NCBI RefSeq assembly: GCF_017355185.1
Contig: NZ_JADILJ010000012.1
Coordinates: 19,697 to 83,696 of the forward strand
DNA from: Rathayibacter sp. SD072
GTDB taxonomy: Bacteria; Actinomycetota; Actinomycetes; Actinomycetales; Microbacteriaceae
DNA length: 64,000 nucleotides
Reading direction: 5' to 3'
The notes under the pieces are model-generated. The model was not told where the DNA came from and searched no databases. It saw only the letters and a program-made list of their open reading frames with translations. Both the position numbers and the translations under genes were made by a program. Positions 36,857 to 55,251 of the stretch are shown here, one piece after another (position 1 is the stretch's first letter; the number at the start of each line of letters is the position of its first letter).

Positions 36857-37483
36857 TCATGCGCGGGTGGCGGCGAGCAGGGCGCCCAGGCGGTCGAGCT
36901 GGGCCGGGTCCTCGAGGGCGGAGCCGACGGCGGCGACGCGGACGCCGGCGTCGAGGTATTCCGAGACGTTGCCGGCGTCGAGTCCGCCGGTGGCGACGAA
37001 GCGGATCCCGGGGAACGGACCGCGGATGTGCGTGAACCAGCCCGCGCCGAGCCAGGTCGCCGGGAAGGCCTTCAACCAGGTGAGGCCGAGCGAGGCGGCG
37101 AGCTGCACCTCCGAGGGGGTCGCGACTCCGGGCAGCAGCGGGAGATCGACGGCGCGGGCGGCGGCGAGGATGCGCTGGTCGAGGCCCGGCGAGACGAGGT
37201 AGCCCGCGCCGGCCGCGCGGGCCGGCGCGACCTGCTCGGGTCGGACGATGGTGCCCGCTCCGACGGTCTTGCCGCGCTCCGCGCCGAGGCGCGCGACCTC
37301 GCGGAGGGCGACCTCGTCCTCCGCGGTCTGCAGCGGCACCTCCACCGAGTCGATGCCGAGGTCCCAGGCGGTGGTCGCGAGGGCGATCGAGCGCTCCCTG
37401 CCCATCCCGCGCAGGATCGCCATCAGCGGGGCGCCGGAGAACACGTCGTCGAACGGGCTGGTGGTGGGGGGCGTGATCGTCAT
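36857..37483 (-). CDS. eda: 2-keto-3-deoxy-6-phosphogluconate aldolase
   Basis: A 208-residue KDPG/KHG aldolase. The Schiff-base Lys is in TWLKAFPATWLG, the catalytic Glu region is GIDSVEVPLQTAED, and GAGTIVRPEQVAPARAAGAG and FVATGGLDAGNVSEYLDAG complete the barrel. The VEVPLQT motif differs from the common IEVTLRT. It cleaves KDPG to pyruvate and glyceraldehyde-3-phosphate, the last step of the pathway encoded upstream. ATG overlaps the kdgK stop. Confidence 0.92.
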   Translation of the reverse strand: MTITPPTTSPFDDVFSGAPLMAILRGMGRERSIALATTAWDLGIDSVEVPLQTAEDEVALREVARLGAERGKTVGAGTIVRPEQVAPARAAGAGYLVSPGLDQRILAAARAVDLPLLPGVATPSEVQLAASLGLTWLKAFPATWLGAGWFTHIRGPFPGIRFVATGGLDAGNVSEYLDAGVRVAAVGSALEDPAQLDRLGALLAATRA

Positions 37484-38400
37484 CGTCGTTCCGTTCTCTC
37501 ATCGAGGGAGTCGCCTGCTACCGCGAGGGTGAGGGCGGCGCGGTCGTGGCCGCGGCGCAGGCGCGCGCCGTGGTCGGCGCCCTGGAGCACGGCGGCCAGG
37601 TAGCCGCCGGCGAAGGCGTCGCCGGCGCCCACCGCGTCGAGCACCTCCACCTCGTGGGAGGGCTCGAAGACCGGAGTGCCGGCATCGGCCGAGAACACCG
37701 TCGCGCCGATGTGGCCGTCCTTGACGACGAGCTCGGCCACGTCCGGGAACATCGCGCGGACGTCCTGGGCGGTGCAGGACCCCCAGAGGGTCTCGGCCTC
37801 GTCGCGGCCGACGAAGACCACGTCGGCGAGGCGGGCGAGGTCGGCGAGGGCGGGAGCGGCGTCCGCGGCGTCCCACAGGGCCGCGCGGTGGTTCACGTCG
37901 ACGCTCACGGGGATCCCCAGCTCGCGGGCGCGCAGGGCGGCGCGGCGGAGGAACCGGGCCGCCGGCTCCGAGAGCGCGGCGGTGATGCCCGAGAGGTGCA
38001 GCAGCGCGACCCCGTCGAACGGAGCCGCGTCGGCGTCCGCCTCGTCGAGGCGGGAGGCGGCCGAACCGGAGCGGTAGTAGACGACGCCCCGCCCCGGGTC
38101 CTTCACGTACAGCCCGGTCGGGTGCTCCGGATCGGCGACCACGGAGGAGACGTCGATGCCGCGCGCGGACAGCTGGCGCAGCACGCGCTCGCCGAGCGCA
38201 TCCGCTCCGAGCCGGCTGTGCCAGCGGGCCGGCACTCCGAGGGCCGCCGCGTGCGCGAGCACGTTCGACTCGGCGCCGCCGGCGTCGACGAGGAACCCGC
38301 CCGCCTGCGCCACCGAGCCGTCCGTCGGCACGACCACGGCCATGGTCTCGCCCATGGCCAGCAGCACGCCGCGCGGGACCGCCGCTCCCGACGAGCTCAC
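37480..38400 (-). CDS. kdgK: 2-keto-3-deoxygluconate kinase (PfkB family)
   Basis: A 306-residue ribokinase-family sugar kinase. The first strand VLLAMGETMAVVVP is followed by GGAESNVLAHAAALG; the catalytic segment is EVLDAVGAGDAFAGGYLAAV with the Asp base. It phosphorylates 2-keto-3-deoxygluconate to KDPG, the substrate of the next enzyme. GTG at 38400 overlaps the kduI stop (GTGA). Assignment to KDG rather than another sugar rests on context. Confidence 0.85.
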   Translation of the reverse strand: MSSSGAAVPRGVLLAMGETMAVVVPTDGSVAQAGGFLVDAGGAESNVLAHAAALGVPARWHSRLGADALGERVLRQLSARGIDVSSVVADPEHPTGLYVKDPGRGVVYYRSGSAASRLDEADADAAPFDGVALLHLSGITAALSEPAARFLRRAALRARELGIPVSVDVNHRAALWDAADAAPALADLARLADVVFVGRDEAETLWGSCTAQDVRAMFPDVAELVVKDGHIGATVFSADAGTPVFEPSHEVEVLDAVGAGDAFAGGYLAAVLQGADHGARLRRGHDRAALTLAVAGDSLDERTERR

Positions 38401-39221
38401 GCCAGGTCGGCGACCGGCGCCGGATCCATGTCGTCGAAGGCCTGGTTCTCGCCGGCCATCGCCCAGACGAACGAGTACGCCGCGGTGCCGACTCCGGAGT
38501 GCAGCGACCAGCTCGGCGAGATGATGGCCTGGCGGTCGGCGACCACGAGGTGGCGCGTCTCCTGGCGCTCGCCGAGGAGGTGGATGACGCGGGCCTCCTC
38601 GGGCAGGTCGAAGTAGAGGTAGCACTCGGTGCGGCGGTCGTGCGTGTGCGCGGGCATCGTGTTCCACATCGAGCCCTCGTGCAGCGTCGTGACGCCCATG
38701 ACGATCTGGCAGCTGCGCACGCCGTTCTCGTGGATGTACTGGTTGAGAGTGCGGCGGTTGCTCGTGGCCTGATCGCCGAGCTCGCGCACGGTGCCCTCGC
38801 CCGGCGACACGAGCGCGGTCGGGTAGGCCGTGTGCGCGGGGGCCGAGAACAGGTAGAACTGCGCGGCTCCGTCGGCGTCCTCGAACGCCACCTTCTCGAT
38901 CCCGCGGCCCAGGTACAGGCAGGCGCCGGTGACGAGGGTGTAGGTCTCGCCGTCGGCGGTCACGGTGCCGGTCCCGCCGACGTTGATGACGCCCAGCTCG
39001 CGGTGCTCGAGGAAGGTCTCGCTGCGGATCTCCTCGTAGCCGGTCAGCTCGAGCCGCTTCCCGGCGGGCGTCGCTCCGCCCAGCACGATGCGGTCGTGGT
39101 GCGTGTAGACGAGGCGGATCTCGCCCTCGACGAAGATCTCGGGCACGAGGAAGTGCGAGCGGAGGTCCTCGGTGGTCATCCCGGGGATCTGCGAGGGGTT
39201 GGTGGCGTAGCGCTGGTCCAT
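38397..39221 (-). CDS. kduI: 5-dehydro-4-deoxy-D-glucuronate isomerase
   Basis: A 274-residue cupin of the KduI family. The start MDQRYATNPSQIPGMTTEDL and body HFLVPEIFVEGEIRLVYTHH are typical; metal ligands are in WNTMPAHTHDRRTECYLYFD and later SWSLHSGVGT. It converts 5-dehydro-4-deoxy-D-glucuronate to 3-deoxy-D-glycero-2,5-hexodiulosonate. AGGAG precedes the ATG at 39221; an earlier ATG at 39257 overlaps the kduD stop but lacks family sequence. Confidence 0.95.
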   Translation of the reverse strand: MDQRYATNPSQIPGMTTEDLRSHFLVPEIFVEGEIRLVYTHHDRIVLGGATPAGKRLELTGYEEIRSETFLEHRELGVINVGGTGTVTADGETYTLVTGACLYLGRGIEKVAFEDADGAAQFYLFSAPAHTAYPTALVSPGEGTVRELGDQATSNRRTLNQYIHENGVRSCQIVMGVTTLHEGSMWNTMPAHTHDRRTECYLYFDLPEEARVIHLLGERQETRHLVVADRQAIISPSWSLHSGVGTAAYSFVWAMAGENQAFDDMDPAPVADLA

Positions 39222-39253
39222 GTCGGAGGCTCCTGGGTCGCGGGTGGGAGGGG

Positions 39254-40018
39254 TCATCGCACGAGCCAGCCGCCGTCGACGGGGAGCACGGTCCCGGTGA
39301 CGTAGGCCGACGCGTCGGAGGCGAGGAAGACGAAGGCGCCCTGCAGGTCGGCGGGGAGTCCCCAGCGTCCGGCGGGGATGCGGGCGAGGATCGCGGCGTC
39401 GCGCGCGGCGTCGGCGCGCAGGGCCGCGGTGTTGTCGGTGGCGAGGTAGCCGGGGGCGATCGCGTTGACGGTCACTCCGGAGGCGGCCCACTCGTTGGCG
39501 AACGCCTTCGTGAGTCCCGCCACGGCGTGCTTGGAGGCGGTGTACCCGGGCACGGTGATGCCGCCCTGGAACGACAGCATCGACGCGACGCTGATGATCC
39601 GGCCGGAGCCCTGCGCGATCATCCGGCGGCCGGCCGCCTGCGTCAGGTGGAACACCGAGTCGAGGTTCACGCGGAGCACCTCGTCCCAGTCGGAGGCGCT
39701 GTGCTCGGCGGCCGGGGCGCGCTTGATGGTGCCCGCGTTGTTGACGAGCACGTCGATCCGCCCGAGCCCGTCGACGGCCTCGTCGATCGCCGAGTGCAGC
39801 TCGTCGGCGCTCGCCGCGGCGAAGTCGCGGCGGATCAGCACGACCCGGCGGCCCAGCGCCCGGATCGCCTCGGCCGTCCCGGAGGCGTCGCCGCGGTCGA
39901 CCAGGGCGATGTCGGCTCCGGCCTCGGCGAGGGCCAGGGCGGCTCCGCGGCCGATGCCCTTGCTGGTGCCGGTGACGACGGCGACGCGGCCGTCGAGTCG
40001 GAAGCTGTCGAGGATCAT
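39254..40018 (-). CDS. kduD: 2-deoxy-D-gluconate 3-dehydrogenase / KduD (SDR)
   Basis: A 254-residue short-chain dehydrogenase. Cofactor motif VVTGTSKGIGRGAALALAEA, NNAGTIKRAPAAEHS, catalytic Ser (SVASMLSFQGG) and Tyr-Lys (PGYTASKHAVAGLTKAFANE). The NAGTIKRAPA and SMLSFQGGI segments are specific to KduD. It reduces the KduI product to 2-keto-3-deoxygluconate. Confidence 0.93.
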   Translation of the reverse strand: MILDSFRLDGRVAVVTGTSKGIGRGAALALAEAGADIALVDRGDASGTAEAIRALGRRVVLIRRDFAAASADELHSAIDEAVDGLGRIDVLVNNAGTIKRAPAAEHSASDWDEVLRVNLDSVFHLTQAAGRRMIAQGSGRIISVASMLSFQGGITVPGYTASKHAVAGLTKAFANEWAASGVTVNAIAPGYLATDNTAALRADAARDAAILARIPAGRWGLPADLQGAFVFLASDASAYVTGTVLPVDGGWLVR

Positions 40019-40866
40019 CGTCCTGCCTTTCGGAAGAGGGTCGTGAGCGAGCCGAGGCCGTCGACGCGCACGGTGACGGAGTCGCCGTCGGCCAGCGGGC
40101 GGTGCGCGGCGAGCGCGTCGGGCAGCTTCTGCGGGCTGCCGGTCGAGATCACGTCGCCGGGCTCGAGGGTGAGGCCCTCGCTGAGGTGGTGGACGAGCGC
40201 CGCCATCGTGAAGACGAGGTCGGCGGTGCTCTGCGAGACGGTGATCCGCCCCTCCCGCTCCACCTCGACACGCAGGTCCTGCGGGTCGGGCACGTCGTCG
40301 GGAGTGACGAGCCAGGGCCCCAGCGGAGCGAAGCCGTCGGAGCACTTGCCGAGGGTCCACTGGCTCGAGCGGCCCTGCCAGGTGCGCTCCGAGACGTCGT
40401 TCATCAGCGAGTAGCCGCCGATGTGCGCGGCGGCCTGCTCGAGCGGGATGTCTCGGCCCGCGCGGCCGATCACGAGGGCGATCTCGCCCTCGTAGTCGAC
40501 GTCGGAGGCGGTCGCCGGCAGGGTCACGGGGTCGCCCGGCGCCGAGAGCGTGTTGGGCGTCTTCACGAAGACGTCGGGAGTCGTCGGGACCGGCCGGTCC
40601 TCTCCTCCGCTGGGCACGTGGCCGCGGTAGTTGTAGCCGATGCAGAGGATCTTGCCCGGCACGACCGGCGGCAGCAGGCGCAGGGAGTCGAGTCGCGGGA
40701 GGTCGTCGCCGGACGCGGCCCCGGCGCGCTCGCGGGCGTCGGCGAGGAGCGCGTCGTCCGCGAGCAGGTCGCTCACGGGCAGCGCGCCCAGGTCGAGCAC
40801 GCGGTCGCCGTCGACGACGACGCCGGTGCGGTCGCCGTCGGGCGAGGAGTAGCGGAGGAGTCTCAC
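40015..40866 (-). CDS. Fumarylacetoacetate hydrolase family protein
   Basis: A 283-residue FAH-superfamily enzyme. Metal and active-site segments are KILCIGYNYRGH, DVDYEGEIALVIGRAGRDI, GYSLMNDVSERTWQGRSSQW and GDVISTGSP. Members hydrolyse or decarboxylate beta-keto acids. Its role among kdu genes is not obvious; it could handle a keto-deoxy sugar acid by-product. GTG at 40866 overlaps the GH88 stop (GTGA); ATG at 40881 is an alternative. Confidence 0.88.
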   Translation of the reverse strand: MRLLRYSSPDGDRTGVVVDGDRVLDLGALPVSDLLADDALLADARERAGAASGDDLPRLDSLRLLPPVVPGKILCIGYNYRGHVPSGGEDRPVPTTPDVFVKTPNTLSAPGDPVTLPATASDVDYEGEIALVIGRAGRDIPLEQAAAHIGGYSLMNDVSERTWQGRSSQWTLGKCSDGFAPLGPWLVTPDDVPDPQDLRVEVEREGRITVSQSTADLVFTMAALVHHLSEGLTLEPGDVISTGSPQKLPDALAAHRPLADGDSVTVRVDGLGSLTTLFRKAGR

Positions 40867-42041
40867 CAGTAGGGCCGCCATTCCGGTCGCGAGGCGCGCA
40901 CGAGCGCCTCCAGGTAGAAGTAGTCGCCCCAGAGGGTGCCCTCGTCGACGCCCACGTCCTTCGGCAGGTCGTAGACGCTGTGCAGCAGGACCGTGTCGGC
41001 CGACTCGGGGGTCGAGGGGGCGCAGTGCTCGATCAGGGCGGCGAGCAGCTCGTGCGCCGACCGGCGCCAGTGCTCGGCGCGCTCCTCGTCGCTCTCCACG
41101 GAGGCGAGCTCGAAGAGCCCGCAGACCGCGATCGCCGCGGCGGAGCTGTCGCGCGGGGCGTCGCTCCCGTCGGTGTAGACGAGGTCCCAGTAGGGCACGA
41201 GGTCGGCCGGGAGGTGCGCGAGGAAGTAGTCGGCGCACGCACGCGAGGCCTCCAGCACCGCCGGATCGCCCGAGACGCGGTGGTTCATCGCGAAGCCGTA
41301 GATCCCCCAGGCCTGACCGCGGGCCCAGCAGGAGTCGTCGAAGGCGCCCTGCTCGGTGCCGCCGTGCAGCGGCTCCCCGGTCTCGGCGTTCCAGTAGAAG
41401 GTGTGGAAGGTCGAGTGGTCCGGGCGGAGGATGTGCGTGCGCAGCGCCTCGACGTGGCGGCGCACGGCCTCGGCCTTGTGCGCGTCGCCCGTCTGCTCGG
41501 CCGCCCAGGTCAGCAGCGGCATGTTCATGAGGGAGTCGATGATGGTCCGACCGCGCTGCGCGGGATCGCGGAGGTCGCCCCAGGCCTGCACGATGCCCGC
41601 GTTCTCGAGGAACCGCGTCATCAGCACGTCGGCGGCGGCCAGCGCGGTCGAGCGGCCCAGGGGGTCCTCGAGCAGTCGCCACGGCGCGACGGCCGAGAGC
41701 GTGTAGAGGAAGCCGAGGTCGTGGGTGTCGAGGTCCTCGCCCTCCCGGAGGCGCCGGGCGAAGTCCTCGAGGTGGCCGGCGGCCGCGCCGCGGAACACCT
41801 CCTCGCCGGTGAGCTCCCACGCGATCCACTGCATGCCCGGCCAGAAGCTGGTGGTCCAGCCGCGGTTGGCCCCGGCCGCGAACCCGGTCGTCGCCGGCCT
41901 CAGCTCGTACCGGCCGTCGACGGTGGTGTCGTCCGGGTAGGCGCTGCCGAACCGCTCGATCATGCGGCGCACGACCTCGAGCGCATCGGCCAGGGCCCGC
42001 TCCGTCGTCGTCCTCGCGGAGGACGGGTGGGTGGTGGTCAT
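40863..42041 (-). CDS. Unsaturated glucuronyl hydrolase (GH88)
   Basis: A 392-residue (alpha/alpha)6-barrel enzyme. The segments GWTTSFWPGMQWIAWELTGE, DTHDLGFLYTLSA (catalytic Asp region), RTIIDSLMNMPLLTWAAEQT (second Asp) and DSCWARGQAWGIYGFAMNHR, HLPADLVPYWDLVY are characteristic of GH88. It hydrates the 4,5-double bond of a terminal unsaturated uronate, releasing 5-dehydro-4-deoxy-glucuronate for KduI. No signal peptide: cytoplasmic. It links the lyase encoded across the divergent promoter to the kdu genes. Confidence 0.93.
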   Translation of the reverse strand: MTTTHPSSARTTTERALADALEVVRRMIERFGSAYPDDTTVDGRYELRPATTGFAAGANRGWTTSFWPGMQWIAWELTGEEVFRGAAAGHLEDFARRLREGEDLDTHDLGFLYTLSAVAPWRLLEDPLGRSTALAAADVLMTRFLENAGIVQAWGDLRDPAQRGRTIIDSLMNMPLLTWAAEQTGDAHKAEAVRRHVEALRTHILRPDHSTFHTFYWNAETGEPLHGGTEQGAFDDSCWARGQAWGIYGFAMNHRVSGDPAVLEASRACADYFLAHLPADLVPYWDLVYTDGSDAPRDSSAAAIAVCGLFELASVESDEERAEHWRRSAHELLAALIEHCAPSTPESADTVLLHSVYDLPKDVGVDEGTLWGDYFYLEALVRASRPEWRPYW

Positions 42042-42064
42042 GACGGTCTGTCCTTCGTCGTGGC

Positions 42065-42736
42065 TCACGCGGCGACCGGCTGGTCGGCGGGGAGGGCGGG
42101 CAGGAGGGTGTAGCGCGCGTCGGCCCAGACGAGGTACAGGGCGGGCGCCGCCGAGACGCCGAGGGCGAGGGCCGGCGAGAGGGTGAAGAGGTACGCCTGG
42201 AAGGCGAGGACCAGCAGCGACACGAGGGTCAGGTGCCAGCGGCGGGCCGCGAGGATCAGCGAGATCCGCAGGGTGCGCAGCAGCGCGGCTCCGGGGGCCT
42301 CGATCAGGGCGACCAGCACGACCGGGGCGGTGCCGACGACGAGCAGCACGACGATCAGGAGGAGCGGTACGACGACCACTCCGATCTGCGACGTCGAGAG
42401 GAACCGCACGTCGACCAGCGCGATCGCGGCGACCGCGGTGGCCACGGCCGCGAGGGCCAGGGTGCGCCCCCAGCCCTGCCGCCAGGCGGCCCAGAAGGTG
42501 CGGACGACCCGGGTCCCGCCCCGGCCGTGCTCGGCGAAGACCGCGAAGGCTCCGCGGACGGCCGGCGCGCACAGCGGCAGGGCCGCCGCGAGCAGCGGCC
42601 ACGACCGCGCCGGGTCGGTGGTGATCAGCAGCAGCACGAGGGGCAGGCAGCCGATCACGAGCAGCACGTTGGTCGTGAGGATGAGGTGGACGACGCCGAA
42701 GAGCGAGGCGTAGAGGCCGTGCGGGATGCGGCGCAT
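42065..42736 (-). CDS. DUF624 (YesL-like) membrane protein
   Basis: A 223-residue protein with five or six helices (HLILTTNVLLVIGCLPLVLL; LALAAVATAVAAIALVDVRF; GVVVVPLLLIVVLLVVGTAP). The N terminus PHGLYASLFGVVHLI and a PAVRGAFAVFAEHGRG loop match DUF624. In Bacillus similar genes (yesL, yteU) sit in pectin/rhamnogalacturonan oligosaccharide import operons; the role is unknown, perhaps an accessory to the permeases next to it. Confidence 0.8.
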   Translation of the reverse strand: MRRIPHGLYASLFGVVHLILTTNVLLVIGCLPLVLLLITTDPARSWPLLAAALPLCAPAVRGAFAVFAEHGRGGTRVVRTFWAAWRQGWGRTLALAAVATAVAAIALVDVRFLSTSQIGVVVVPLLLIVVLLVVGTAPVVLVALIEAPGAALLRTLRISLILAARRWHLTLVSLLVLAFQAYLFTLSPALALGVSAAPALYLVWADARYTLLPALPADQPVAA

Positions 42737-42737
42737 C

Positions 42738-43652
42738 TCAGCCCTTCAATCCGCTGGTCGCGATGCCCTCGACGAAGTACTTCTGACCGAGCAGGAAGAC
42801 CACGGCGATGGGGATCACCGAGATGACCAGGCCCGCGAACAGCAGCGCGTAGTTGGCGTCGTAGAGGGTGCTGACGAAGCTCTGCAGCCCGAGCTGGATC
42901 GTCCAGAGGTCGGGGTTGCGGAGGTAAATCAGTGGTCCGAGGTAGTCGTTCCAGGTGGCGACGAAGGTGAGCAGGGTGAGGCTCGCGATCGCGGGGATCG
43001 ACAGCGGCACCATGATCCGCGCCCAGATGCCGTACTCGCTCAGGCCGTCCAGGCGCGCGGCCTCCGAGAGCTCCTCGGGGATCGTCTCGTAGAACTGCTT
43101 CATCAGGAACACGCCGAACGCGCCGAACGCCTGGATGAGGATGATCGCCCAGAGGGTGTTCGACACCTTCAGGTTCGACAGCAGGATGAACTGCGGGATC
43201 ATGTACGACTGCCACGGCACCGCGATGGTGCCGATGTAGACCAGGAACAGCACGTCGCGACCGGGGAACCGCATCCGCGAGAAGCCGTAGGCCGCGAACG
43301 AGCCGGTGAGCACCTGGAGCACGGTCACGACGACCGCCAGGATCAGCGTGTTCCGGATCCACGTGAGCATCCCGGACTGCGCCCAGATGTCGACGTAGTT
43401 GTTCCAGACCCAGGTGTCGGGCACCCACTTCACGGGCACCGAGAAGACGTCGTTCGGCGTCTTGAGCGAGCTCATGATCATCCAGAAGAACGGCAGCAGC
43501 AGCGCGGCCGCGGCGAGGATCATCACGGCGTAGCCGAGCAGACGGCCCACGCGCGACAGGGTGGAGCGGCCGGCGGTCTTCCGGCGCGGCGCGAGCGGCT
43601 CGTCGACGCGCGGCAGGACGGGAGCGCCCTCGGGGATCAGCAGTCCGGTCAT
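42738..43652 (-). CDS. Oligosaccharide ABC transporter permease (MalG/YtcP type)
   Basis: A 304-residue permease with six helices; EAA loop ELSEAARLDGLSEYGIWARI and C terminus YFVEGIATSGLKG. ATG overlaps the partner permease stop. It is followed one base later by the DUF624 gene. Confidence 0.92.
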   Translation of the reverse strand: MTGLLIPEGAPVLPRVDEPLAPRRKTAGRSTLSRVGRLLGYAVMILAAAALLLPFFWMIMSSLKTPNDVFSVPVKWVPDTWVWNNYVDIWAQSGMLTWIRNTLILAVVVTVLQVLTGSFAAYGFSRMRFPGRDVLFLVYIGTIAVPWQSYMIPQFILLSNLKVSNTLWAIILIQAFGAFGVFLMKQFYETIPEELSEAARLDGLSEYGIWARIMVPLSIPAIASLTLLTFVATWNDYLGPLIYLRNPDLWTIQLGLQSFVSTLYDANYALLFAGLVISVIPIAVVFLLGQKYFVEGIATSGLKG

Positions 43653-44584: not shown

Positions 44585-44679
44585 GAGACCTCCAAGGTCT
44601 GGGCAGGGCTGGGGCTGGGGCTGTGCCGGGGTCGAGCGGAGGCGGTGGCCGGCCGGGGTCGGCCGGCCACCGCGGGGAG

Positions 44680-45984: not shown

Positions 45985-48029
45985 GCGTGCTGCTCCTTTG
46001 CATCTGCGTCCGGGACTCCACCTCGGGTCCTCGGGTACCGGAGCCGCCGAGCGGCGCGTCCGGAATCTGGGAGTCGGTGCTCGGTGACGAGGCCGTCGGG
46101 CCAGGTCGCCGTCACGGACAGTGCGTCGCCGTCGAGGGCGACGTCGACAGAGGCGGCGCCCTCGACGGGGGCCTCCGCTCCGGCCGTCTCTTCGGCGGTG
46201 AGGCCGACCAGCGCGGCGACGACGGCGCCGACCTCCGCTGGAACGGTGAGGACGGGCACGCCGACGGCGGGGCCGAGCGGGCTCGCGCCGTCGCGGGCGA
46301 CGACTCCGGGGACGGCGCCGGCGGTGAGTGCGGTGAGCGTGCCGGTGCGGCGGCCGTTGGAGACGGTTGCCGTCGCGGTGTCCGCGTCCGCGTCGACCCG
46401 CTCGCCGGCGATCGCCCAGCCGCCGATCCGCAGGCGCAGATCCGTGATGCGCACGTCCTCGGCGAGCTCGTCGATCCGCGCGAGCCGCAGCTCCCACGGG
46501 CCGCGCACCAGCGAGTGCACGCTGAGTCGGCCGGCGATGCGCACGGCTCCGCTCACTCCCTCGCCGTGCCGGTGGGTGCTGCGCTCCGGAGTGATCCAGT
46601 GCGCGTCCCAGGTCGAGCCGGCGACGCCGACACGGCCGTCCGCGTCGAGGCGCACCTCGGTCAGCTCCATGCCGGTGCGGTGGGTCGCCTCGCCCGCCGC
46701 GTCCACCAGCGCGACGCTCTGCTCGAGCGCCTCCGTCCAGCCCTGCTCGTCGAGCAGCGGCGCGGTGGCGGTGGAGTAGCCCAGCCGGACGTAGAGCGGG
46801 GAATCGCCGGTGGTCGCACCGGGCAGTGCCTTGTCGGTGCCGTGGTTGACCACGCGGACGATCCCGTCGGCCTGCGTGCCGGAGACGATCCAGCCGGGCG
46901 AGACGATCGCGCGCAGGTCGTCGCCCTGCTCGATCGGGAGCAGGGCGAGGGGGAGCGCTTCGGTCCCGGCCGCCCAGACCGGGTGGTCGGCGGGCAGCGC
47001 GATCCCGAGCAGGCCCTTGACCGCCCAGTACGGCGAGCCGGGTCCGGAGTAGGACTGCGCGAGCTCGCGCCACGGGTCGTGCCAGCCCATCGAGAGCAGG
47101 CCGTCCTCGCCGGGGGCGCCGTTGTCGGCGAAGTGCCCGACGATCGCGCTCGCGGCACGGCGGAGGCGGCGCGGCGGGTGCGAGGGGACCTCGGCGATCA
47201 CGCCCGCCCAGAACGGCGCGGCAGCGGCGAAGCGGTAGATCAGGCTGCGGCCCTGGAGCAGCGGCGAGCCGTCACCGCCGACGAGCGCGAGGGCGTCGGA
47301 GAGGTAGCGGTCGAGCCGGGCGACGTCCGCGGCGGCGCGGGGGGCCGCGAGCTCGGCCGCGCCGGCCATCCGCGACCAGAGCACGGGGTACACCTGCAGG
47401 GCCCAGCCGACGTAGTGGTCGAAGGCGCGCTCCGCGCCGTCCGCGAGCCAGCCGTCCTCGCGGAGGAAGGAGTCGTGCCGGGCGAGATCCGCGGTCATGT
47501 CCTGCATCGACCACGGGCCGCCGACCGAGCGGAGGAAGGTCTCGACGACCAGGCGGAACCAGACCCAGTTGGTCTGCGGGTAGGTGTCGTCACCGACGAC
47601 GGGAGCGAGGTAGTCGATCACGCGCTGCTGCGTGCGGGCGTCGAGGCGGTCCCAGATCCACGGCCGTGTGAGGTCCAGCACGAGGGCGATCGACGCCGCT
47701 TCGACCTTGGCCTGGGCATGCTCCTCGATCCGCACCCAGCGGTCGTCCGCATCGGGATCGACGCCGGTCTCGACGCCGCGGCGGTAGAAGTCGATCAGCG
47801 CGTCGACGCCCTCGCCGCGCGCCCCGGCGATGCGGAAGCCTGCGAGCAGGAAGGTACGGGCGAAGCCCTCGAGGCCGTCGACGGCGCGACCGTAGCCGCC
47901 CACGGCGCCGGGCAGGGTGATCCGACCGTGACCGGCGCTGGCGTAGGGAGCCACGGCGGCGAGCAGCGCGTCCGCGACGGCGAGCCAGTGCTCGCGCGTC
48001 CAGTCGGCGCGGAGGTTCCCCTCGTCCAC
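45981..48029 (-). CDS. DUF2264 domain protein
   Basis: A 682-residue cytoplasmic protein. The N-terminal ~360 residues match DUF2264, a helical toroid: HGRITLPGAVGGYGRAVDGL, YPQTNWVWFRLVVETFLRSV, DGWLADGAERAFDHYVGWAL, SGPGSPYWAVKGLLGIALP. The rest (residues ~370-660) is beta-rich, as in heparinase-like lyases with an alpha-toroid plus beta-sandwich. Related proteins occur in rhamnogalacturonan and GAG loci; an unrecognised lyase or glycosidase role is inferred. It is the promoter-proximal gene of the leftward operon. Confidence 0.85.
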   Translation of the reverse strand: MDEGNLRADWTREHWLAVADALLAAVAPYASAGHGRITLPGAVGGYGRAVDGLEGFARTFLLAGFRIAGARGEGVDALIDFYRRGVETGVDPDADDRWVRIEEHAQAKVEAASIALVLDLTRPWIWDRLDARTQQRVIDYLAPVVGDDTYPQTNWVWFRLVVETFLRSVGGPWSMQDMTADLARHDSFLREDGWLADGAERAFDHYVGWALQVYPVLWSRMAGAAELAAPRAAADVARLDRYLSDALALVGGDGSPLLQGRSLIYRFAAAAPFWAGVIAEVPSHPPRRLRRAASAIVGHFADNGAPGEDGLLSMGWHDPWRELAQSYSGPGSPYWAVKGLLGIALPADHPVWAAGTEALPLALLPIEQGDDLRAIVSPGWIVSGTQADGIVRVVNHGTDKALPGATTGDSPLYVRLGYSTATAPLLDEQGWTEALEQSVALVDAAGEATHRTGMELTEVRLDADGRVGVAGSTWDAHWITPERSTHRHGEGVSGAVRIAGRLSVHSLVRGPWELRLARIDELAEDVRITDLRLRIGGWAIAGERVDADADTATATVSNGRRTGTLTALTAGAVPGVVARDGASPLGPAVGVPVLTVPAEVGAVVAALVGLTAEETAGAEAPVEGAASVDVALDGDALSVTATWPDGLVTEHRLPDSGRAARRLRYPRTRGGVPDADAKEQHA

Positions 48030-48112
48030 GGTGGCTCTCCTTTGAATCGTGATGTCCCGACGCCCTGAGCGGCCCGTCGTGCGGCGGCGTGACCGGCGCT
48101 GAACAGAACAGG

Positions 48113-48173
48113 ACTATACATACGGAAATCGATCATTTCAATGTTCACTTGAGTCAAATTGATCGATTATGAT
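48113..48173. promoter_or_regulatory. Divergent promoters with shared inverted-repeat operator
   Basis: Leftward promoter: TTGAAA (complement of 48136-48141), 17-base spacer, TATAGT (complement of 48113-48118). Rightward promoter: TTCACT (48144-48149), 18-base spacer, TATGAT (48168-48173). An inverted repeat, AATCGATCA (48127-48135) and TGATCGATT (48160-48168), puts one arm in the spacer of each promoter. This AT-rich island controls both uronate operons; the DeoR/LacI hybrid is the probable binder. Confidence 0.75.
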
Positions 48174-48180
48174 CGCTTAC

Positions 48181-50160
48181 ATGCCTCACTCTTCAGGCCC
48201 GGCCCGATCGCCAGGTGTGATCGAGTCCTTCCGGGGACCGCTCGCCGCCGCGTTCTCGCCGGATCGTCCGCTCTCGGCGCGCGGGGTCCTCGTGGTGCCG
48301 GAGTTGTCGCTGCCGGTGCCGACCGCGGCCGATCGCGAGGCCTGGGCGGATGCGGATGCACCGACCCTCGCCGCCGTCGCCGAGCGCGCCGCCGCCGACC
48401 TGCTCGTTCCCTGGCCGCAGCCGCTCGCGAGCGAGGCCGTCGGCGTGCACCGCGACGGGAACCGCGACCGCTGGGAGCAGAGCGCGTTCGAGCGGCAGCG
48501 GCGACTGAGCCGCGCGGTGCTGCTGGCGGCCAGCACCGCCGGCACTGGCGCGGACGGCGACTCGTGGCTCGACCAGGTCGCCGACGGCGTGCAGCTGCTC
48601 TGCGAGCAGAGCTCCTGGTGCTGGCCCGCCCACGACGACGCGCTCCGCCGGCACGGCTCGGTGCTCGCTGACGTCGCCGACCCCTTCCTCGACCTCGGGG
48701 CCGGTGAGGTCGCCGGCCAGCTCGCCTGGCTCGACCACGTCCTCGGCGAGCGCCTCGACCTCCGCTACCCGGGGCTGCGCCGCCGGATCCGCCTCGAGGT
48801 CCGCGAGCGCGTGCTCGCCCCGTTCCTCGCCCGCGACGACTGGCACTGGCTCGGCCTCGACGGCGACGTGCACAACTGGAACCCCTGGATCACGGGCAAC
48901 ATCCTCGTCGCCGCGCTGCGCCTGCTCGACGCTCCAGGCGAGGAGGACGAGCGTGCCGCCGTCGTCACCCGCGCCGTCGCCGCGCTGGACCGCTACATCG
49001 CCGTGCTCCCCGAGGACGGCGCGATCGACGAGGGCTACGCCTACTGGTGGAACGGCGCCTGCCGCGCGCTCGAGGCGCTCGACGTCCTCGCGCACGCGAC
49101 CGGCGGCGCCTGGAACGCCTCCGAAGTCCCGGCGCTGCGCGCCACCGTCGCCTTCCCGCACCGCTCGCACCTCGGCGGCGATTGGTACGTCGCGCACGCC
49201 GACGGCCAGGCCCTGCAGTCGCGCGACCAGCCCTGGCACGCGGTGCACCGGGCCGGCCGCGGGGTCGGCGACGCGGCCGCCACGGCGCACGCAGCGGCGC
49301 AGCGCTCCCCCGGCGGGCCCGCCGCCTCGGAGAAGGAGGGACTCGGGCGGCTGCTGCGCGGAGTGACCGACCCGCTCTGGACCGCGGCTCCCCCGGCCCT
49401 TCCGCCGCTCCCCCGTGAGGTCTGGCTCGAGTCCGTCCAGGTGCTCCTGGCCCGCACGACCGAGGGATCGGCGGAGGGCCTGACGCTCGTCGCCAAGGGC
49501 GGGCACAACGCGGAGCACCACAACCACAACGACGTCGGCTCGTTCCAGGTGGCGAGCGAGGGGGTGCCCGTCGTCGTCGACGCCGGTCGCCCCACCTACA
49601 CCGCCGCCACCTTCGGCCCGGAGCGCTACGGCATCTGGACGATGCGGAGCGAGTGGCACAATCTGCCCGTCGTCCGCGGACTCGGCCAGCCGGCCGGGCG
49701 GGCGGCGGCCGCCGCGGACGTGTCGGTCGCGCTGAGCGATCGATCCGCCGCGTTCTCCGCGGAGCTCGCCGCGGCGTACCCCGTTGCGGGGCTGCGCTCC
49801 TGGCGCCGGACCGTCCTCCTCGACCGCCCCGCCCACCGGGTCGTGCTCGAGGACCGCTGGGACCTCGCCCCGTGGGACGATCGTGACGATGAGCCCGGCA
49901 CCGCGATCCGACTGCTCCTCGCGGGAGACGTCGTGACCGAGCGCGGCGCCGCCCGGGTCCGCCCGCTCCAGTCGGCGCGGCCGCTCCGGATCACCTGGGA
50001 TCCCGCCTGCGAGCACCGGGCCGTCGTCCGGACGCTGGACGATCCGTTGCTCTCGAGCGTGTGGGGCGAGCGGCTGACGCTGCTCGAGATCGACGCCACC
50101 GCGCGCAGGCAGCTGCGCATCGCGATAGACCTGGACCCACCGATCGGAGACTCACGATGA
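48181..50160 (+). CDS. Heparinase II/III family polysaccharide lyase-like protein
   Basis: A ~659-residue protein with an alpha/alpha toroid (HWLGLDGDVHNWNPWITGNI; DGAIDEGYAYWWNGACRALE) and a heparinase II/III beta-sandwich domain (LVAKGGHNAEHHNHNDVGSF then PVVVDAGRPTYTAATFGPER). The GGHNAEHHNHND motif holds the His/Asn catalytic and metal region of the family. No signal peptide, so it likely cleaves imported oligosaccharides. ATG at 48181 sits 8 bases after the -10 box, so the transcript may be leaderless; ATG at 48169 is in frame but lies inside the -10/operator. It overlaps the regulator gene (ATGA). Confidence 0.88.
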   Translation: MPHSSGPARSPGVIESFRGPLAAAFSPDRPLSARGVLVVPELSLPVPTAADREAWADADAPTLAAVAERAAADLLVPWPQPLASEAVGVHRDGNRDRWEQSAFERQRRLSRAVLLAASTAGTGADGDSWLDQVADGVQLLCEQSSWCWPAHDDALRRHGSVLADVADPFLDLGAGEVAGQLAWLDHVLGERLDLRYPGLRRRIRLEVRERVLAPFLARDDWHWLGLDGDVHNWNPWITGNILVAALRLLDAPGEEDERAAVVTRAVAALDRYIAVLPEDGAIDEGYAYWWNGACRALEALDVLAHATGGAWNASEVPALRATVAFPHRSHLGGDWYVAHADGQALQSRDQPWHAVHRAGRGVGDAAATAHAAAQRSPGGPAASEKEGLGRLLRGVTDPLWTAAPPALPPLPREVWLESVQVLLARTTEGSAEGLTLVAKGGHNAEHHNHNDVGSFQVASEGVPVVVDAGRPTYTAATFGPERYGIWTMRSEWHNLPVVRGLGQPAGRAAAAADVSVALSDRSAAFSAELAAAYPVAGLRSWRRTVLLDRPAHRVVLEDRWDLAPWDDRDDEPGTAIRLLLAGDVVTERGAARVRPLQSARPLRITWDPACEHRAVVRTLDDPLLSSVWGERLTLLEIDATARRQLRIAIDLDPPIGDSR

Positions 50161-51290
50161 GCGACCAGACTCAGTCCCCTCCCCTCGCCGCCGAGCGACG
50201 GGCGCACATCCTCGCGGCCCTGGGCGTCGACGGCGCCGTGCGGATCTCGCAGCTCACCGAGGCGCTCGGTGTGGCGACGGTCACGCTCCGTCGCGATCTG
50301 GTGCAGATGGAGCGAGAGGGGCTGCTCAGCCGCGTGCACGGCGGCGCGGTCGTCCTCGGCGCGAGCGCCCCCGCGCCCGCGCCCGCGGAGAAGGAGGTCA
50401 GGCTCGGCTCGATCGCCGTCCTGGTCCCCTCGCTCAACTACTACTGGCCCGGCGTGCTGCACGCGATGGAGGCGACGGGCCGCAGCCTCGGCCACAACGT
50501 CGTCCTGCGCGGCGCGTCCTACGAGCTGCAGGACGAGCGGCCGGTACTCGAGCGGCTGCTGCGCTCCGGCGACGTGCGCGGGCTGATCGTCGCGCCGAAC
50601 ACCGACACCGAGCACTCCGGCGACGTCCTGCGCTGGCTCGCCGACTGCGGCGTGCCGTCGGTCCTGGTCGAGCGCGACGCCGTCCTCGAGCCGGAGGGCA
50701 CGCCGGCGGAGTCGGTCACCACCGACCACGCGCTCGGGGCGGTGCTCGCCGCCCGCCACCTCGCCGAGCTCGGGCACCGGAAGGTCGGCCTGATCCTGTC
50801 GCGGAACTCGCCGACCTCGCGCAAGATCGCCGCGGGCTGGCTCTCCGCCTGCGAGGCCCTCGGCCTCACCCCCGCCGACCACTTCGAGGAGACGCTGCCC
50901 GACCGCGGCAGCGCCGACTTCTCCGCAGTGGTCGACGCGGCCCTCGAGACGGCACTCGAGACCGGCGTCACCGCCCTGCTCGTCCACTCCGACCCTGAGG
51001 CGATGGCCTTCGTCGACCTCGCTCTCAACCGCGGCATCTCCGTACCCGGCGACCTCTCGGTGATCGCCTACGACGACGAGGTCGCTCAGCTGTTCACGCC
51101 CGCGTTGACCGCGGTGAGCCCGCCGCGCGCCGGGGTCGGCGAGGCCGCGGTCCGTCTGCTCGTGCAGAGGATCGAGGACCCCGAGCGGCCCGTGCACCGC
51201 GTGCAGCTCAACCCGAGCCTGATCGTCCGCGCCTCCACGGCGGCCCCCGGGCGGTCGGCGGACGGGCGGCCGGCGGAGGACGCGCGGTGA
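50157..51290 (+). CDS. DeoR-type HTH / LacI-type sensor hybrid regulator
   Basis: A 377-residue regulator. Residues ~10-65 are a DeoR winged helix (ERRAHILAALGVDGAVRISQ then VTLRRDLVQMEREGLLSRVH, ending with the GGAV motif). From residue ~80 on it is a periplasmic-binding-protein sensor like LacI (SIAVLVPSLNYYWPGVLHAM; GLIVAPNTDTEHSGDVLRWL; LAELGHRKVGLILSRNSPTS; LSVIAYDDEVAQLFTPALTA). It probably senses an oligosaccharide or uronate and controls the divergent promoter at 48113-48173. Confidence 0.9.
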   Translation: MSDQTQSPPLAAERRAHILAALGVDGAVRISQLTEALGVATVTLRRDLVQMEREGLLSRVHGGAVVLGASAPAPAPAEKEVRLGSIAVLVPSLNYYWPGVLHAMEATGRSLGHNVVLRGASYELQDERPVLERLLRSGDVRGLIVAPNTDTEHSGDVLRWLADCGVPSVLVERDAVLEPEGTPAESVTTDHALGAVLAARHLAELGHRKVGLILSRNSPTSRKIAAGWLSACEALGLTPADHFEETLPDRGSADFSAVVDAALETALETGVTALLVHSDPEAMAFVDLALNRGISVPGDLSVIAYDDEVAQLFTPALTAVSPPRAGVGEAAVRLLVQRIEDPERPVHRVQLNPSLIVRASTAAPGRSADGRPAEDAR

Positions 51291-51832
51291 TCGACCGCCA
51301 CGAGCACTCGCCGTGGTCGTTCTGGGCCGAGGCCTCACCGGAGCGGCGGGCGCGCCAGCTCGACCTGCAGCGTGAGCTGGTGGCCGCGCACGACGGCTGG
51401 GCGATCGGCGCGGACTGCTTCGTCGCGGAGTCGGCCGCGGTCGATCCGGATCACCTCGTGCTGGGCGACCGCTCGTACATCGCCGCAGGCGCGTACCTGA
51501 CGGGTGACGTCGAGGTCGGCGCCGACTGCTCGCTGAACCCCTACACGGTGGTGCGCGGGGACGTCGTCCTCGGCTCGGCCGTCCGGATCGGCGCGCACTC
51601 GTCGATCCTCGGCTTCAACCACTCGATGGAGCCCGGCACCGAGGTCTTCCGCCAGCCGCTGACCTCCCGAGGGATCCGCATCGGCGACGACGTCTGGATC
51701 GGCTCGCACGTGGTCGTGCTCGACGGCGTGACGGTCGGCGACCACGCCGTGCTCGCCGCGGGCGCCGTCGTGACGAAGGACGTGGCGGCCGGCGCGGTCG
51801 TGGGCGGGAACCCGGCGCGCCGGCTGCGCTAG
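51287..51832 (+). CDS. Hexapeptide-repeat acyltransferase
   Basis: A 181-residue left-handed beta-helix protein: AESAAVDPDHLVLGDRSYIA, GADCSLNPYTVVRGDVVLGS, IGAHSSILGFNHSMEPG, RIGDDVWIGSHVVVLDGVTV and the closing AAGAVVGGNPARRLR, as in maltose/galactoside acetyltransferases. It would acylate a sugar, perhaps to detoxify a non-metabolised product. The GTG overlaps the regulator stop (GTGA). Its TAG stop is followed in the same frame by the next open frame. Confidence 0.88.
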   Translation: MIDRHEHSPWSFWAEASPERRARQLDLQRELVAAHDGWAIGADCFVAESAAVDPDHLVLGDRSYIAAGAYLTGDVEVGADCSLNPYTVVRGDVVLGSAVRIGAHSSILGFNHSMEPGTEVFRQPLTSRGIRIGDDVWIGSHVVVLDGVTVGDHAVLAAGAVVTKDVAAGAVVGGNPARRLR

Positions 51833-51874
51833 CGGGTCCCTCCGGTCGCCGCCGATCTCTCGGACGCCGCGCGC

Positions 51875-52876
51875 TTGGCGGACCGCGCCCGCGAGGAGAT
51901 CGAGGGGATCCTCCGCCCTTCCGCGGTCGACGACGACCCGGCGTGCCACGGCGGACCCGCCTTCCGCGACAGACCGGACGCCGCCCCGACCGACCGCGCG
52001 CTCGGCGACGCGGTCGAGCTCGCCGACCTCCTGCTCGGCGCGTCGCCTCCCGACGTCGACCCCGCGGCCGTCGTTGCACGGCTGCACGGACTGCCGATCC
52101 CGGGGGCCGACCTCTGGACCGATCCGGAGGCCGCTTACCGGGTGCTGAGCGCGGGCTACGCGCTCGACCTGCTCGGATCGGGGTTCGCGCAGCCGCTCAC
52201 CGCCGTGACCGAGGAGACCCCTGAAGGCCTGATCGCGCGGCTCGACGGGCTGCGCTGGCGCGACGACCCGTGGAACGCAGGCCACCACGTCGACGCCTTC
52301 GGCACCGCACTGCACTGGACCCGCCGCCGCGGCGACGCGGTCCCGGTCGGCCTCGAGGAGGCGCTCTTCGGCTGGCTGCTCACCCGGGCCGATCCCCGCA
52401 GCGGGATGTGGGGCGACGGCTCGGCCGAGCGCGGACTGCTCCTGCTGGTGAACGGCTCGTACCGGACGACCCGCGGCACCCTCGTGCAGCACGGCGGACC
52501 GCTCCCGTATCCCGAGGCGATCCGCGACACCGTGCTCCGGCACGCCCGCGACGACCGCTGGTTCCGGCCCGAGCGCGTGGACGCCTGCGCCGCCCTCGAC
52601 CTCGTCCACCCGCTCTGGCTCACCCGCAGCACCGGCTACCGCGACGCCGAGGTCGAGCCGCTGGCGAGGACCCTGCTCGCGCAGGTCCTCGGCCAGTGGC
52701 GCCCGGGCCGCGGCTTCGCCTTCCGCCTGCACGACGCCGACGCCGGCCTGCAGGGCACCGAGATGTGGCTCGCCACCCTCTGGTACCTCACTGACCTGCT
52801 CGGCGCCTCCGACACCCTCGGCTACCGCCCCCGCGGCGTCCACCGCCCGGAGCCGGCCCCTCGGGCGCCCCGCTGA
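51875..52876 (+). CDS. Uncharacterised alpha/alpha-toroid protein
   Basis: A ~333-residue Trp-rich, helix-rich protein of no recognised family: ADLWTDPEAAYRVLSAGYAL, WNAGHHVDAFGTALHWTRRR, WLLTRADPRSGMWGDGSAER, DACAALDLVHPLWLTRSTG, QGTEMWLATLWYLTDLLGAS. The pattern suggests a prenyltransferase/squalene-cyclase-like or six-hairpin toroid. The only usual start in frame is TTG at 51875, without a clear ribosome site, although the coding-like sequence (VPPVAADLSDAARLADRARE) begins right after the acyltransferase TAG in the same frame. Either TTG start, re-initiation or a split fusion is possible. Confidence 0.6.
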   Translation: MADRAREEIEGILRPSAVDDDPACHGGPAFRDRPDAAPTDRALGDAVELADLLLGASPPDVDPAAVVARLHGLPIPGADLWTDPEAAYRVLSAGYALDLLGSGFAQPLTAVTEETPEGLIARLDGLRWRDDPWNAGHHVDAFGTALHWTRRRGDAVPVGLEEALFGWLLTRADPRSGMWGDGSAERGLLLLVNGSYRTTRGTLVQHGGPLPYPEAIRDTVLRHARDDRWFRPERVDACAALDLVHPLWLTRSTGYRDAEVEPLARTLLAQVLGQWRPGRGFAFRLHDADAGLQGTEMWLATLWYLTDLLGASDTLGYRPRGVHRPEPAPRAPR

Positions 52877-55241: not shown

Positions 55242-55251
55242 CGGTCGTCTC

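What the first reader, a model, noticed from the sequence alone, without database searches (positions are those of the whole stretch)
36857..52876. Complete, all-cytoplasmic uronate-oligosaccharide catabolic locus in two divergent operons
Seen: leftward DUF2264, binding protein, two permeases, DUF624, GH88, FAH, kduD, kduI, kdgK, eda, almost all with overlapping junctions; rightward heparinase II/III-like lyase, DeoR/LacI hybrid, acyltransferase, toroid protein. Known: GH88 plus KduI, KduD, KdgK and Eda convert unsaturated uronates to pyruvate and glyceraldehyde-3-phosphate. Inference: neither lyase-like protein has a signal peptide, so intact oligosaccharides are imported and depolymerised inside. 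The combination with DUF2264, FAH, an acyltransferase and an orphan toroid protein does not match a described locus I know; the polymer (rhamnogalacturonan, GAG-like, gellan/xanthan-like) is open.
Basis: partly seen in the sequence, partly recalled or inferred. Interest (0 to 1): 0.72.

Follow-up and report, generated by a model that had tools for sequence, protein, structure and literature searches.

The report
Glucuronide-catabolism locus with swappable exit module
A bacterium (likely a plant-associated Rathayibacter) carries two back-to-back operons whose enzymes would import glucuronic-acid-bearing sugar fragments, probably from plant arabinogalactan, and likely break the glucuronic acid down inside the cell; in many sister loci the second half of this pathway is replaced by one unrelated redox-type enzyme whose chemistry is unknown.

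Summary
Three labels change. "DUF2264" is a two-domain relative of the beta-D-glucuronate dehydratase published in 2025 (ex-GH154). The "heparinase-like lyase" is a PL33 with all published catalytic residues. The "orphan toroid" is the C-terminal half of an acyltransferase gene, split here by an in-frame stop. Best reading (activities inferred): PL33 (4-substituted GlcA) and the dehydratase (free-ended GlcA) both make 4,5-unsaturated glucuronides, which GH88, KduI, KduD, KdgK and Eda carry to pyruvate and glyceraldehyde-3-phosphate. An arabinogalactan-type Rha-GlcA-Gal substrate is favoured: galactan hydrolases and rhamnose or galactose genes flank 33 of 80 sister loci, GH59 is enriched in PL33 genomes, and two same-genus relatives carry the locus's operator-like repeat before GH59. 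A GAG- or gellan-like substrate stays open; the window's genome has a PL8 and no GH59. New: of 80 named actinobacterial loci, 31 have GH88 and 43 instead a D-2-hydroxyacid-dehydrogenase-like protein, never both, with at least four exchanges on the PL33 tree. No description of such an exit was found in searches. New variant of a known kind; interest 0.6.

The parts
36857..37483 (-). eda: KDPG/KHG-type aldolase (predicted)
   Evidence: Pfam Aldolase 9e-36; NCBIfam eda 139 bits, below its cut-off of 156
37480..38400 (-). kdgK: PfkB-family KDG kinase (predicted); start 38400 or 38355
   Evidence: PfkB 1e-43; KDG/KDGal kinase model 145 bits of 400; both scans used the shorter form; start 38400
38397..39221 (-). 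[quoted passage not shown]
   Evidence: NCBIfam equivalog 400 bits, cut-off 250
39254..40018 (-). kduD: KDG 5-dehydrogenase (SDR)
   Evidence: TIGR01832 345 bits, cut-off 338.85
40015..40881 (-). FAH-superfamily protein, accessory, role unassigned
   Evidence: FAA_hydrolase 6.5e-64; 2,4-didehydro-3-deoxy-L-rhamnonate hydrolase 171 bits, cut-off 500; present in 15 of 31 GH88-type loci
40863..42041 (-). GH88 unsaturated glucuronyl hydrolase (predicted)
   Evidence: 1vd5 E 4e-89; D108 aligns with the residue that is Asn in the 2ahf variant
42065..42736 (-). DUF624 membrane protein
   Evidence: Pfam 25.5 bits, cut-off 24.2
42738..43652 (-). ABC sugar permease B
   Evidence: Neighbour of permease A, conserved in sister loci; not scanned itself
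43649..44584 (-). ABC sugar permease A
   Evidence: BPD_transp_1 2e-20
44680..45984 (-). Solute-binding lipoprotein
   Evidence: SBP_bac_1 2e-31; hydrophobic start with LTACSS
45981..48029 (-). GDH (DUF2264): two-domain beta-D-glucuronate dehydratase relative (predicted)
   Evidence: 9o4u E 5e-20, 9nwf 4e-19, 8oi4 2e-21; model toroid plus beta-sandwich
48160..48175 (+). Tandem TGATCG operator-like repeat TGATCGATTATGATCG
   Evidence: 1 match in the window, 0.01 expected; half-site repeat upstream of PL33 in 50 of 80 loci
48169..50160 (+). PL33-family lyase (start 48169, 48181 or 48217)
   Evidence: 8r6z/8r75 E about 2e-73 over residues 36-642 of 663, catalytic residues kept
50157..51290 (+). 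DeoR-HTH / LacI-type sensor hybrid regulator
   Evidence: HTH_DeoR 1e-12 and Peripla_BP_3 3e-36
51287..51832 (+). Hexapeptide (LbH) acyltransferase, N-terminal part of a gene interrupted by an in-frame stop
   Evidence: Hexapep 3e-23
51875..52876 (+). Toroid domain, C-terminal part of the same interrupted gene

Best explanation
These two divergent operons encode a PL33-family lyase, a relative of beta-D-glucuronate dehydratase, a GH88-family hydrolase, KduI, KduD and predicted KdgK and Eda beside an ABC importer, and they would import glucuronate-bearing oligosaccharides, probably Rha-GlcA-Gal fragments of plant arabinogalactan, and likely degrade them inside the cell. Proposed order: the importer brings the oligosaccharide in. 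PL33 eliminates whatever is 4-linked to GlcA (L-rhamnose if the substrate is arabinogalactan). The dehydratase removes water from GlcA ends that carry no 4-substituent. Both reactions give the same 4,5-unsaturated glucuronide. GH88 hydrolyses it to 5-keto-4-deoxyuronate plus the next sugar, and KduI, KduD, KdgK and Eda turn that into pyruvate and glyceraldehyde-3-phosphate. The DeoR/LacI hybrid would control both operons from the tandem TGATCG site. Shown here: gene families, conserved active-site residues, linkage, a shared operator-like repeat, flanking sugar genes. Inferred: every activity, the substrate and the regulation. FAH and the acyltransferase get no assigned role.
For: PL33: E about 2e-73 to BtPL33HA; R103, H154, L174, N238, W239, W242, Y291, H444 all kept. 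GDH: 7 of 10 published BcGDH active-site residues identical by alignment, two more by spacing; Foldseek matches to BcGDH, E 1e-13. GH88: UGL, E 4e-89. BcGDH feeding BcGH88 was shown in vitro in B. caccae (PMC12269599). GDH is present in 71 of 80 PL33 loci and in 31 of 34 PL33+ vs 6 of 265 PL33- Microbacteriaceae genomes. Substrate: galactan hydrolase clusters in 25 of 80 flanks, rhamnose genes in 7, galT-galK in 3; GH59 over its cut-off in 13 of 34 vs 4 of 265 genomes (over 200 bits: 11 vs 0), with no significant GH10 enrichment (14 of 34 vs 12 of 46, p 0.23); operator-like repeat before GH59 in two same-genus genomes.
Against: No activity is measured. PL33 members tested so far cut HA, chondroitin, heparosan or gellan, not arabinogalactan; a Curtobacterium PL33 was inactive on the authors' panel. 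The UGL relatives are known from GAG work. BcGDH N176 is Thr here. The window's genome has no GH59, carries a secreted-size PL8, and PL8 is also enriched in PL33 genomes (6 of 34 vs 6 of 265; 6 of 34 vs 1 of 46, p 0.04). 47 of 80 flanks show none of the hydrolase, rhamnose or galTK clusters. The 200-bit GH59 and 120-bit GH43 thresholds were set after seeing the scores. Eda and KdgK miss the curated cut-offs.
Confidence: 0.65

Rival explanations
1. Same pathway, but the substrate is a GAG-like or gellan/xanthan-like polysaccharide; a secreted PL8-type lyase elsewhere in the genome would make the oligosaccharides.
For: Characterised PL33 enzymes act on HA, heparosan, chondroitin sulfate and gellan; Trp at the -1 subsite as in PL33_1; PL8 in the window's genome and in 6 of 34 PL33+ vs 6 of 265 PL33- genomes; Microbacterium PL8 enzymes cut GAGs (PMC12666371 passages).
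Against: No hexosaminidase or amino-sugar gene in the window's locus by the scans made; PL8 is absent from the two PL33+ same-genus relatives and found in 1 of 13 GH88-type genomes; galactan and rhamnose genes recur in the flanks.
Confidence: 0.22
2. The DUF2264 protein is a beta-glucuronidase or other glycosidase, as GH154 was first described, so GH88 would serve only PL33 products.
For: BT3677 and 8oi4 were first reported as glucuronidase and galactosidase; the window protein has the extra domain described for BT3677.
Against: BcGDH and BT3677 were both shown to dehydrate, and no glycosidase-type active site was seen (PMC12269599); the dehydration residues are kept here.
Confidence: 0.1
3. 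GH88-type and dehydrogenase-type loci serve different substrates (for instance GlcA at the reducing end, Rha-GlcA, in the latter), so the exchange is a change of diet, not of chemistry.
For: Many dehydrogenase-type binding proteins are only 37-45% identical to the window's; free Rha-GlcA is a known lyase substrate giving Rha and unsaturated GlcA (PMC8377490); dehydrogenase homologues also occur beside ThuA without GDH (L182-L185).
Against: In Microbacterium, L081, L082 and L092 (dehydrogenase type) keep binding protein, permeases, PL33, GDH and regulator about as close to the window's as GH88-type loci do; the operator half-site repeat occurs in both types (21 of 31 and 25 of 43), as do galactan hydrolases (13 of 31 and 11 of 43).
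Confidence: 0.4

Closest known systems
Bacteroides caccae PUL25 (BcPL35, BcGH88, BcGDH, BcGH109; PMC12269599)
   Same: A lyase, a glucuronate dehydratase and GH88 converge on unsaturated GlcA
   Different: PL35 rather than PL33, Bacteroidota PUL for chondroitin with GH109; here ABC importer, no hexosaminidase found, kdu genes and regulator in the locus
PL33 enzymes BT4410 and relatives (PMC11848413)
   Same: Family, fold region and all published catalytic residues
   Different: Actinobacterial, no signal peptide seen, substrate unknown; known members act on GAGs or gellan
BT3677 (founding GH154 member, a glucuronate dehydratase by PMC12269599)
   Same: Toroid plus a second domain; dehydratase residues
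   Different: Bacteroides protein; direct sequence comparison not run, as its sequence was not fetched
KduI/KduD and DhuI/DhuD clusters (PMC12838403)
   Same: KduI-KduD step from DKI to KDG
   Different: Sister loci replace GH88, KduI and KduD by a 2-hydroxyacid-dehydrogenase-like protein, not among the types in the passages read
Rha-GlcA lyases PL27 and FoRham1 (PMC8377490)
   Same: The proposed reaction: rhamnose released, unsaturated GlcA left
   Different: Different lyase families; here the reaction is only proposed

Membership tests
PL33 | Sequence similarity over most of the two-domain protein | tested here: met
   E about 2e-73 over residues 36-642 of 663
PL33 | Catalytic N238, Y291, H444 | tested here: met
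   N236, Y292, H451, invariant in 22 aligned Microbacteriaceae sequences, window included
PL33 | Subfamily PL33_1: Trp at -1 subsite with its covarying residue | tested here: inconclusive
   W240 matches W242, but the second marker (position 301) could not be matched to the chain numbering and no subfamily tree was built
PL33 | Lyase activity | not testable with these tools
   Needs assay
beta-D-glucuronate dehydratase (ex-GH154) | Sequence and fold of the toroid | tested here: met
   E 5e-20; Foldseek E 1e-13, TMt 0.75
beta-D-glucuronate dehydratase (ex-GH154) | Ten published active-site residues | tested here: inconclusive
   7 identical by alignment, 2 by spacing only (E54, R58), N176 is Thr153
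beta-D-glucuronate dehydratase (ex-GH154) | Water elimination from terminal GlcA | not testable with these tools
   Needs assay
GH88 unsaturated glucuronyl hydrolase | Sequence and catalytic Asp residues | tested here: met
   1vd5 E 4e-89; D108 and D169 aligned (their catalytic role is recalled)
KduI/KduD pathway | KduI and KduD by curated models | tested here: met
   Both pass an equivalog cut-off
KduI/KduD pathway | KdgK and Eda by curated models | tested here: not met
   Family matches, but 145 of 400 and 139 of 156 bits; assigned by context only
2,4-diketo-3-deoxy-L-rhamnonate hydrolase (for the FAH protein) | NCBI equivalog cut-off | tested here: not met
   171 bits, cut-off 500
PL27 / PL42 Rha-GlcA lyases | Sequence family | not tested
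   No profile of these families was run on the window's lyase

The most novel reading that the evidence does not exclude
In the sister loci without GH88, a D-2-hydroxyacid-dehydrogenase-fold enzyme takes over from GH88, KduI and KduD together and is an undescribed NAD(P)-dependent exit from 4,5-unsaturated glucuronides. It has been exchanged with the classical hydrolase module at least four times while importer, PL33, dehydratase, regulator and operator stayed. It would be a further nonhomologous solution beside KduI/KduD and DhuI/DhuD, or even a redox-assisted cleavage of the unsaturated glucuronide itself. The window's locus is then the classical state of a two-state system for arabinogalactan glucuronides.
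Probability: 0.42. Interest if true: 0.78.

Novelty: new variant of a known kind. Interest (0 to 1): 0.6.

Why it matters
It turns an unassigned locus into a testable pathway and proposes a substrate for actinobacterial PL33 enzymes, of which the one tested (Curtobacterium) showed no activity on the published panel. It extends the dehydratase-plus-GH88 logic, shown in Bacteroides, to plant- and soil-associated Actinomycetota. The strict either/or between GH88 and a 2-hydroxyacid-dehydrogenase-like protein marks a possible new enzyme activity in uronate catabolism, carried by 43 of the 80 loci examined.

Tried and rejected

Limits of the counts. Presence in a locus means a tblastn match in about 10 kb on each side, less at contig ends. 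Flank clusters are single-linkage groups from a codon-usage gene caller that misses lower-GC loci (L042-L044, L122, L128); one representative of each was scanned. Fisher p-values ignore relatedness, and the PL33- sample holds small genomes. The operator pattern was read off the same upstream regions in which it was then counted, so that enrichment is partly by construction; the sites before GH59 and galT are not. The tree is a quick one; of its 5 changes, 4 are forced by starred branches, and direction is unknown. The background rate of 2-hydroxyacid-dehydrogenase homologues near a random gene was not measured.
Full report
OBSERVATION. Eleven leftward and four rightward ORFs form two divergent operons with a 139-bp gap; 6 of 10 leftward junctions overlap. 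The binding protein has a lipoprotein-type start; PL33, GH88, GDH and the toroid ORF have no signal-peptide-like start by eye. GDH's hydropathy peak near the start is almost as high as the binding protein's, but lies in the first helix of the modelled toroid; no predictor was run. Two corrections: the acyltransferase and toroid ORFs share one frame and are separated by an in-frame TAG, while 115 of 120 listed relatives have one fused protein; and the PL33 start is uncertain, because a TGATCG tandem repeat covers the first ATG.

SOURCE. The window lies in a 3.88-Mb, 117-contig assembly. A same-genus genome, G171, has its PL33 on a contig of 483,839 bases, the length of the Rathayibacter sp. VKM Ac-2856 contig returned as L067, and the nearest toroid homologues are Rathayibacter. 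The genus is very likely Rathayibacter; this is an inference.

WHAT THE ENZYMES ARE. The heparinase-like protein matches BtPL33HA over residues 36-642 of 663 (E about 2e-73). The residues named in the PL33 paper (PMC11848413; outline, sections 5, 8, 11 and 13, and passages) are all present: R103, H154, L174, N238, W239, W242, Y291, H444 correspond to R99, H155, L174, N236, W237, W240, Y292, H451, invariant in 22 aligned Microbacteriaceae sequences except L174, which is nearly so. DUF2264 matches 8oi4, 9o4u and 9nwf, the last two being the beta-D-glucuronate dehydratase BcGDH (PMC12269599; outline, section 9 and passages). Its AlphaFold model (pLDDT 83.8) is a toroid plus a beta-sandwich, and its best Foldseek matches are those same entries, followed by alginate, heparin and PL33 lyases. 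Of the ten BcGDH residues whose mutants had no detectable activity, seven align as identical and invariant in 19 sequences, two match by spacing, and N176 is Thr. The two-domain build resembles what the paper says of BT3677. GH88 matches unsaturated glucuronyl hydrolase (1vd5, E 4e-89). KduI and KduD pass a curated cut-off; Eda, KdgK and FAH do not.

HOW IT LIKELY WORKS (inferred). PL33 needs something 4-linked to GlcA; the dehydratase needs GlcA with a free 4-OH. Both leave a 4,5-unsaturated glucuronide, which GH88 opens to 5-keto-4-deoxyuronate; KduI, KduD, KdgK and Eda give pyruvate and glyceraldehyde-3-phosphate. This would explain why the two travel together: GDH is in 71 of 80 named PL33 loci, and DUF2264 is over its cut-off in 31 of 34 PL33+ against 6 of 265 PL33- Microbacteriaceae genomes. 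BcGDH feeding BcGH88 was shown in vitro for B. caccae.

SUBSTRATE. Recurrent non-core clusters in the flanks of the 80 loci are GH59 (9 loci), GH30 whose representative's best PDB match is an endo-beta-1,6-galactanase (7), GH43 whose representative matches galactan 1,3-beta-galactosidases (5), GH35 (4) and lectin-bearing GH5 (4), together in 25 of 80. Rhamnulokinase is in 7 (representative 444 bits, cut-off 528), L-rhamnose isomerase in 6 (606, cut-off 531), the rhamnose binding protein in 4 (387, cut-off 342); 30 of 80 have a hydrolase or rhamnose cluster. galT and galK are beside 3 more, so 33 of 80 have some and 47 none. Other recurrent clusters have no such link: an ABC ATPase (by eye), a DUF993 / isomerase / Gfo-Idh set, another Gfo-Idh. 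In 299 genomes, over family cut-off: GH59 13 of 34 PL33+ vs 4 of 265 PL33-; GH30_2 10 vs 16; PL8 6 vs 6; the GH43 type at E 1e-20 11 vs 16. With thresholds set after seeing the scores: GH59 over 200 bits 11 vs 0, GH43 of 120 bits or more 8 vs 3. A GH10 control on the 34 PL33+ and 46 of the 265 PL33- genomes gives 14 vs 12, p 0.23; on the same 80 genomes GH59 is 11 vs 0, GH43 8 vs 0, GH30_2 10 vs 1, PL8 6 vs 1 with p 0.04. Four of the 11 GH59 genes lie within 20 kb of PL33 (positions). These families fit arabinogalactan, whose side chains carry Rha-alpha-1,4-GlcA ends on beta-1,6-galactose (PMC8377490 passages; PMC8406133 passages). The window's genome has a GH30_2 multidomain protein and a GH35 on contig C70, a PL8 on C35 and no GH59. 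GAG- or gellan-like substrates therefore stay open.

REGULATION. The tandem GATCG-N5-GATCG, a pattern read off these upstream regions, occurs 77 times in the 80 loci; 59 lie within -450..+60 of PL33, in 50 loci, where 2.5% of the bases are. The window has TGATCGATTATGATCG at 48160-48175 (0.01 expected). In 13 GH88-type genomes the pattern with up to one mismatch is found 25 times: 11 at PL33/GDH, 2 before GH59 (G045, G171), 1 just before galT-galK (G072), and 11 elsewhere, of which one lies by a kduD-like and one by a DeoR/LacI-like match and 9 by none of the proteins queried. Binding by the DeoR/LacI hybrid is inferred.

THE EXCHANGE. Of the 80 named loci, 31 have GH88, 43 have a D-2-hydroxyacid-dehydrogenase-like protein (HADH), 0 have both and 6 have neither. 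On the PL33 tree of 81 rows the label needs at least 5 changes, 4 of them forced by starred branches; shuffles average 24.6. In the 33 Microbacteriaceae regions the numbers are 10, 20, 0 and 3. Genome-wide, a clear GH88 and a KduI-type protein (95-108 bits to PF04962, as the window's) are found in the same 14 of 34 PL33 genomes; a fifteenth, G225, has a borderline GH88 match and no KduI; in G224 GH88 lies far from PL33, whose locus is of the HADH type. Most of the others carry an IolB-type relative (over 218 bits); in seven GH88 loci (Micromonosporaceae and one Cellulomonas) an IolB-type protein sits next to GH88, so IolB-type isomerases may serve too. HADH keeps an invariant Arg, Glu and His (R238, E266, H285; their roles are recalled). 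Its nearest solved relatives by profile are phosphoglycerate dehydrogenases and a glycerate dehydrogenase/glyoxylate reductase. Minimal loci hold only PL33, regulator, GDH, HADH, importer and DUF624 (L094, L096). In 8 of 10 GDH loci without PL33 an HADH homologue lies in the fetched stretch, which ties HADH to GDH, though the background was not measured and some of these homologues are only 38-46% identical. HADH homologues also occur with ThuA and no GDH (L182-L185), so the subfamily has other roles. Reported DEH reductases are SDR, beta-HAD or AKR (PMC8778563 passages), and reported isomerase-reductase clusters use KduI or DhuI with KduD or DhuD (PMC12838403 passages). A D-2-hydroxyacid-dehydrogenase exit was not found in searches.

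VERDICT. A newly legible pathway: a new variant (PL33 plus dehydratase plus GH88, apparently all cytoplasmic, actinobacterial, probably for arabinogalactan) of the known unsaturated-uronate route, with a striking, unexplained module exchange in its relatives. All activities remain predictions.

Noticed in passing
51830-51832: An in-frame TAG splits the acyltransferase-toroid gene that is one protein in 115 of 120 listed relatives; interruption, true split or assembly error was not resolved.
   Followed up: partly
L182:9511; L183:9569; L184:9401; L185:9356: HADH homologues elsewhere in four GH88-type genomes (the window's own included) all lie within the fetched stretch of a ThuA-like gene, without GDH or PL33: a second, unknown pathway of the same subfamily.
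   Followed up: partly
L075:1489-2313; L078:1707-2546 and five more loci: In seven GH88 loci a protein of the KduI/IolB family that passes the IolB cut-off (one representative scanned) sits between GH88 and kduD, perhaps as a DKI isomerase.
   Followed up: partly
53790-56268: Aldehyde dehydrogenase and phosphotriesterase-family genes beside the locus, not seen conserved with it in the sister loci mapped.
   Followed up: no
L189 (G224:C1:3145000-3164900): A regulator-GH88-kduD-kduI operon without FAH, PL33 or GDH in the fetched stretch, in a genome whose PL33 locus is of the HADH type.
   Followed up: no
G000 contig C35:51602-52372 and C35:17650-18516: A PL8-type lyase and a second GH88/GH105-family gene elsewhere on one contig of the window's genome.
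   Followed up: no
GDH residue 153 (BcGDH N176), window 45981-48029: Thr in 6 of 8 GH88-type sequences aligned (window included) and in L038, Asn in 9 of 11 HADH-type ones; may reflect substrate or just clade.
   Followed up: partly
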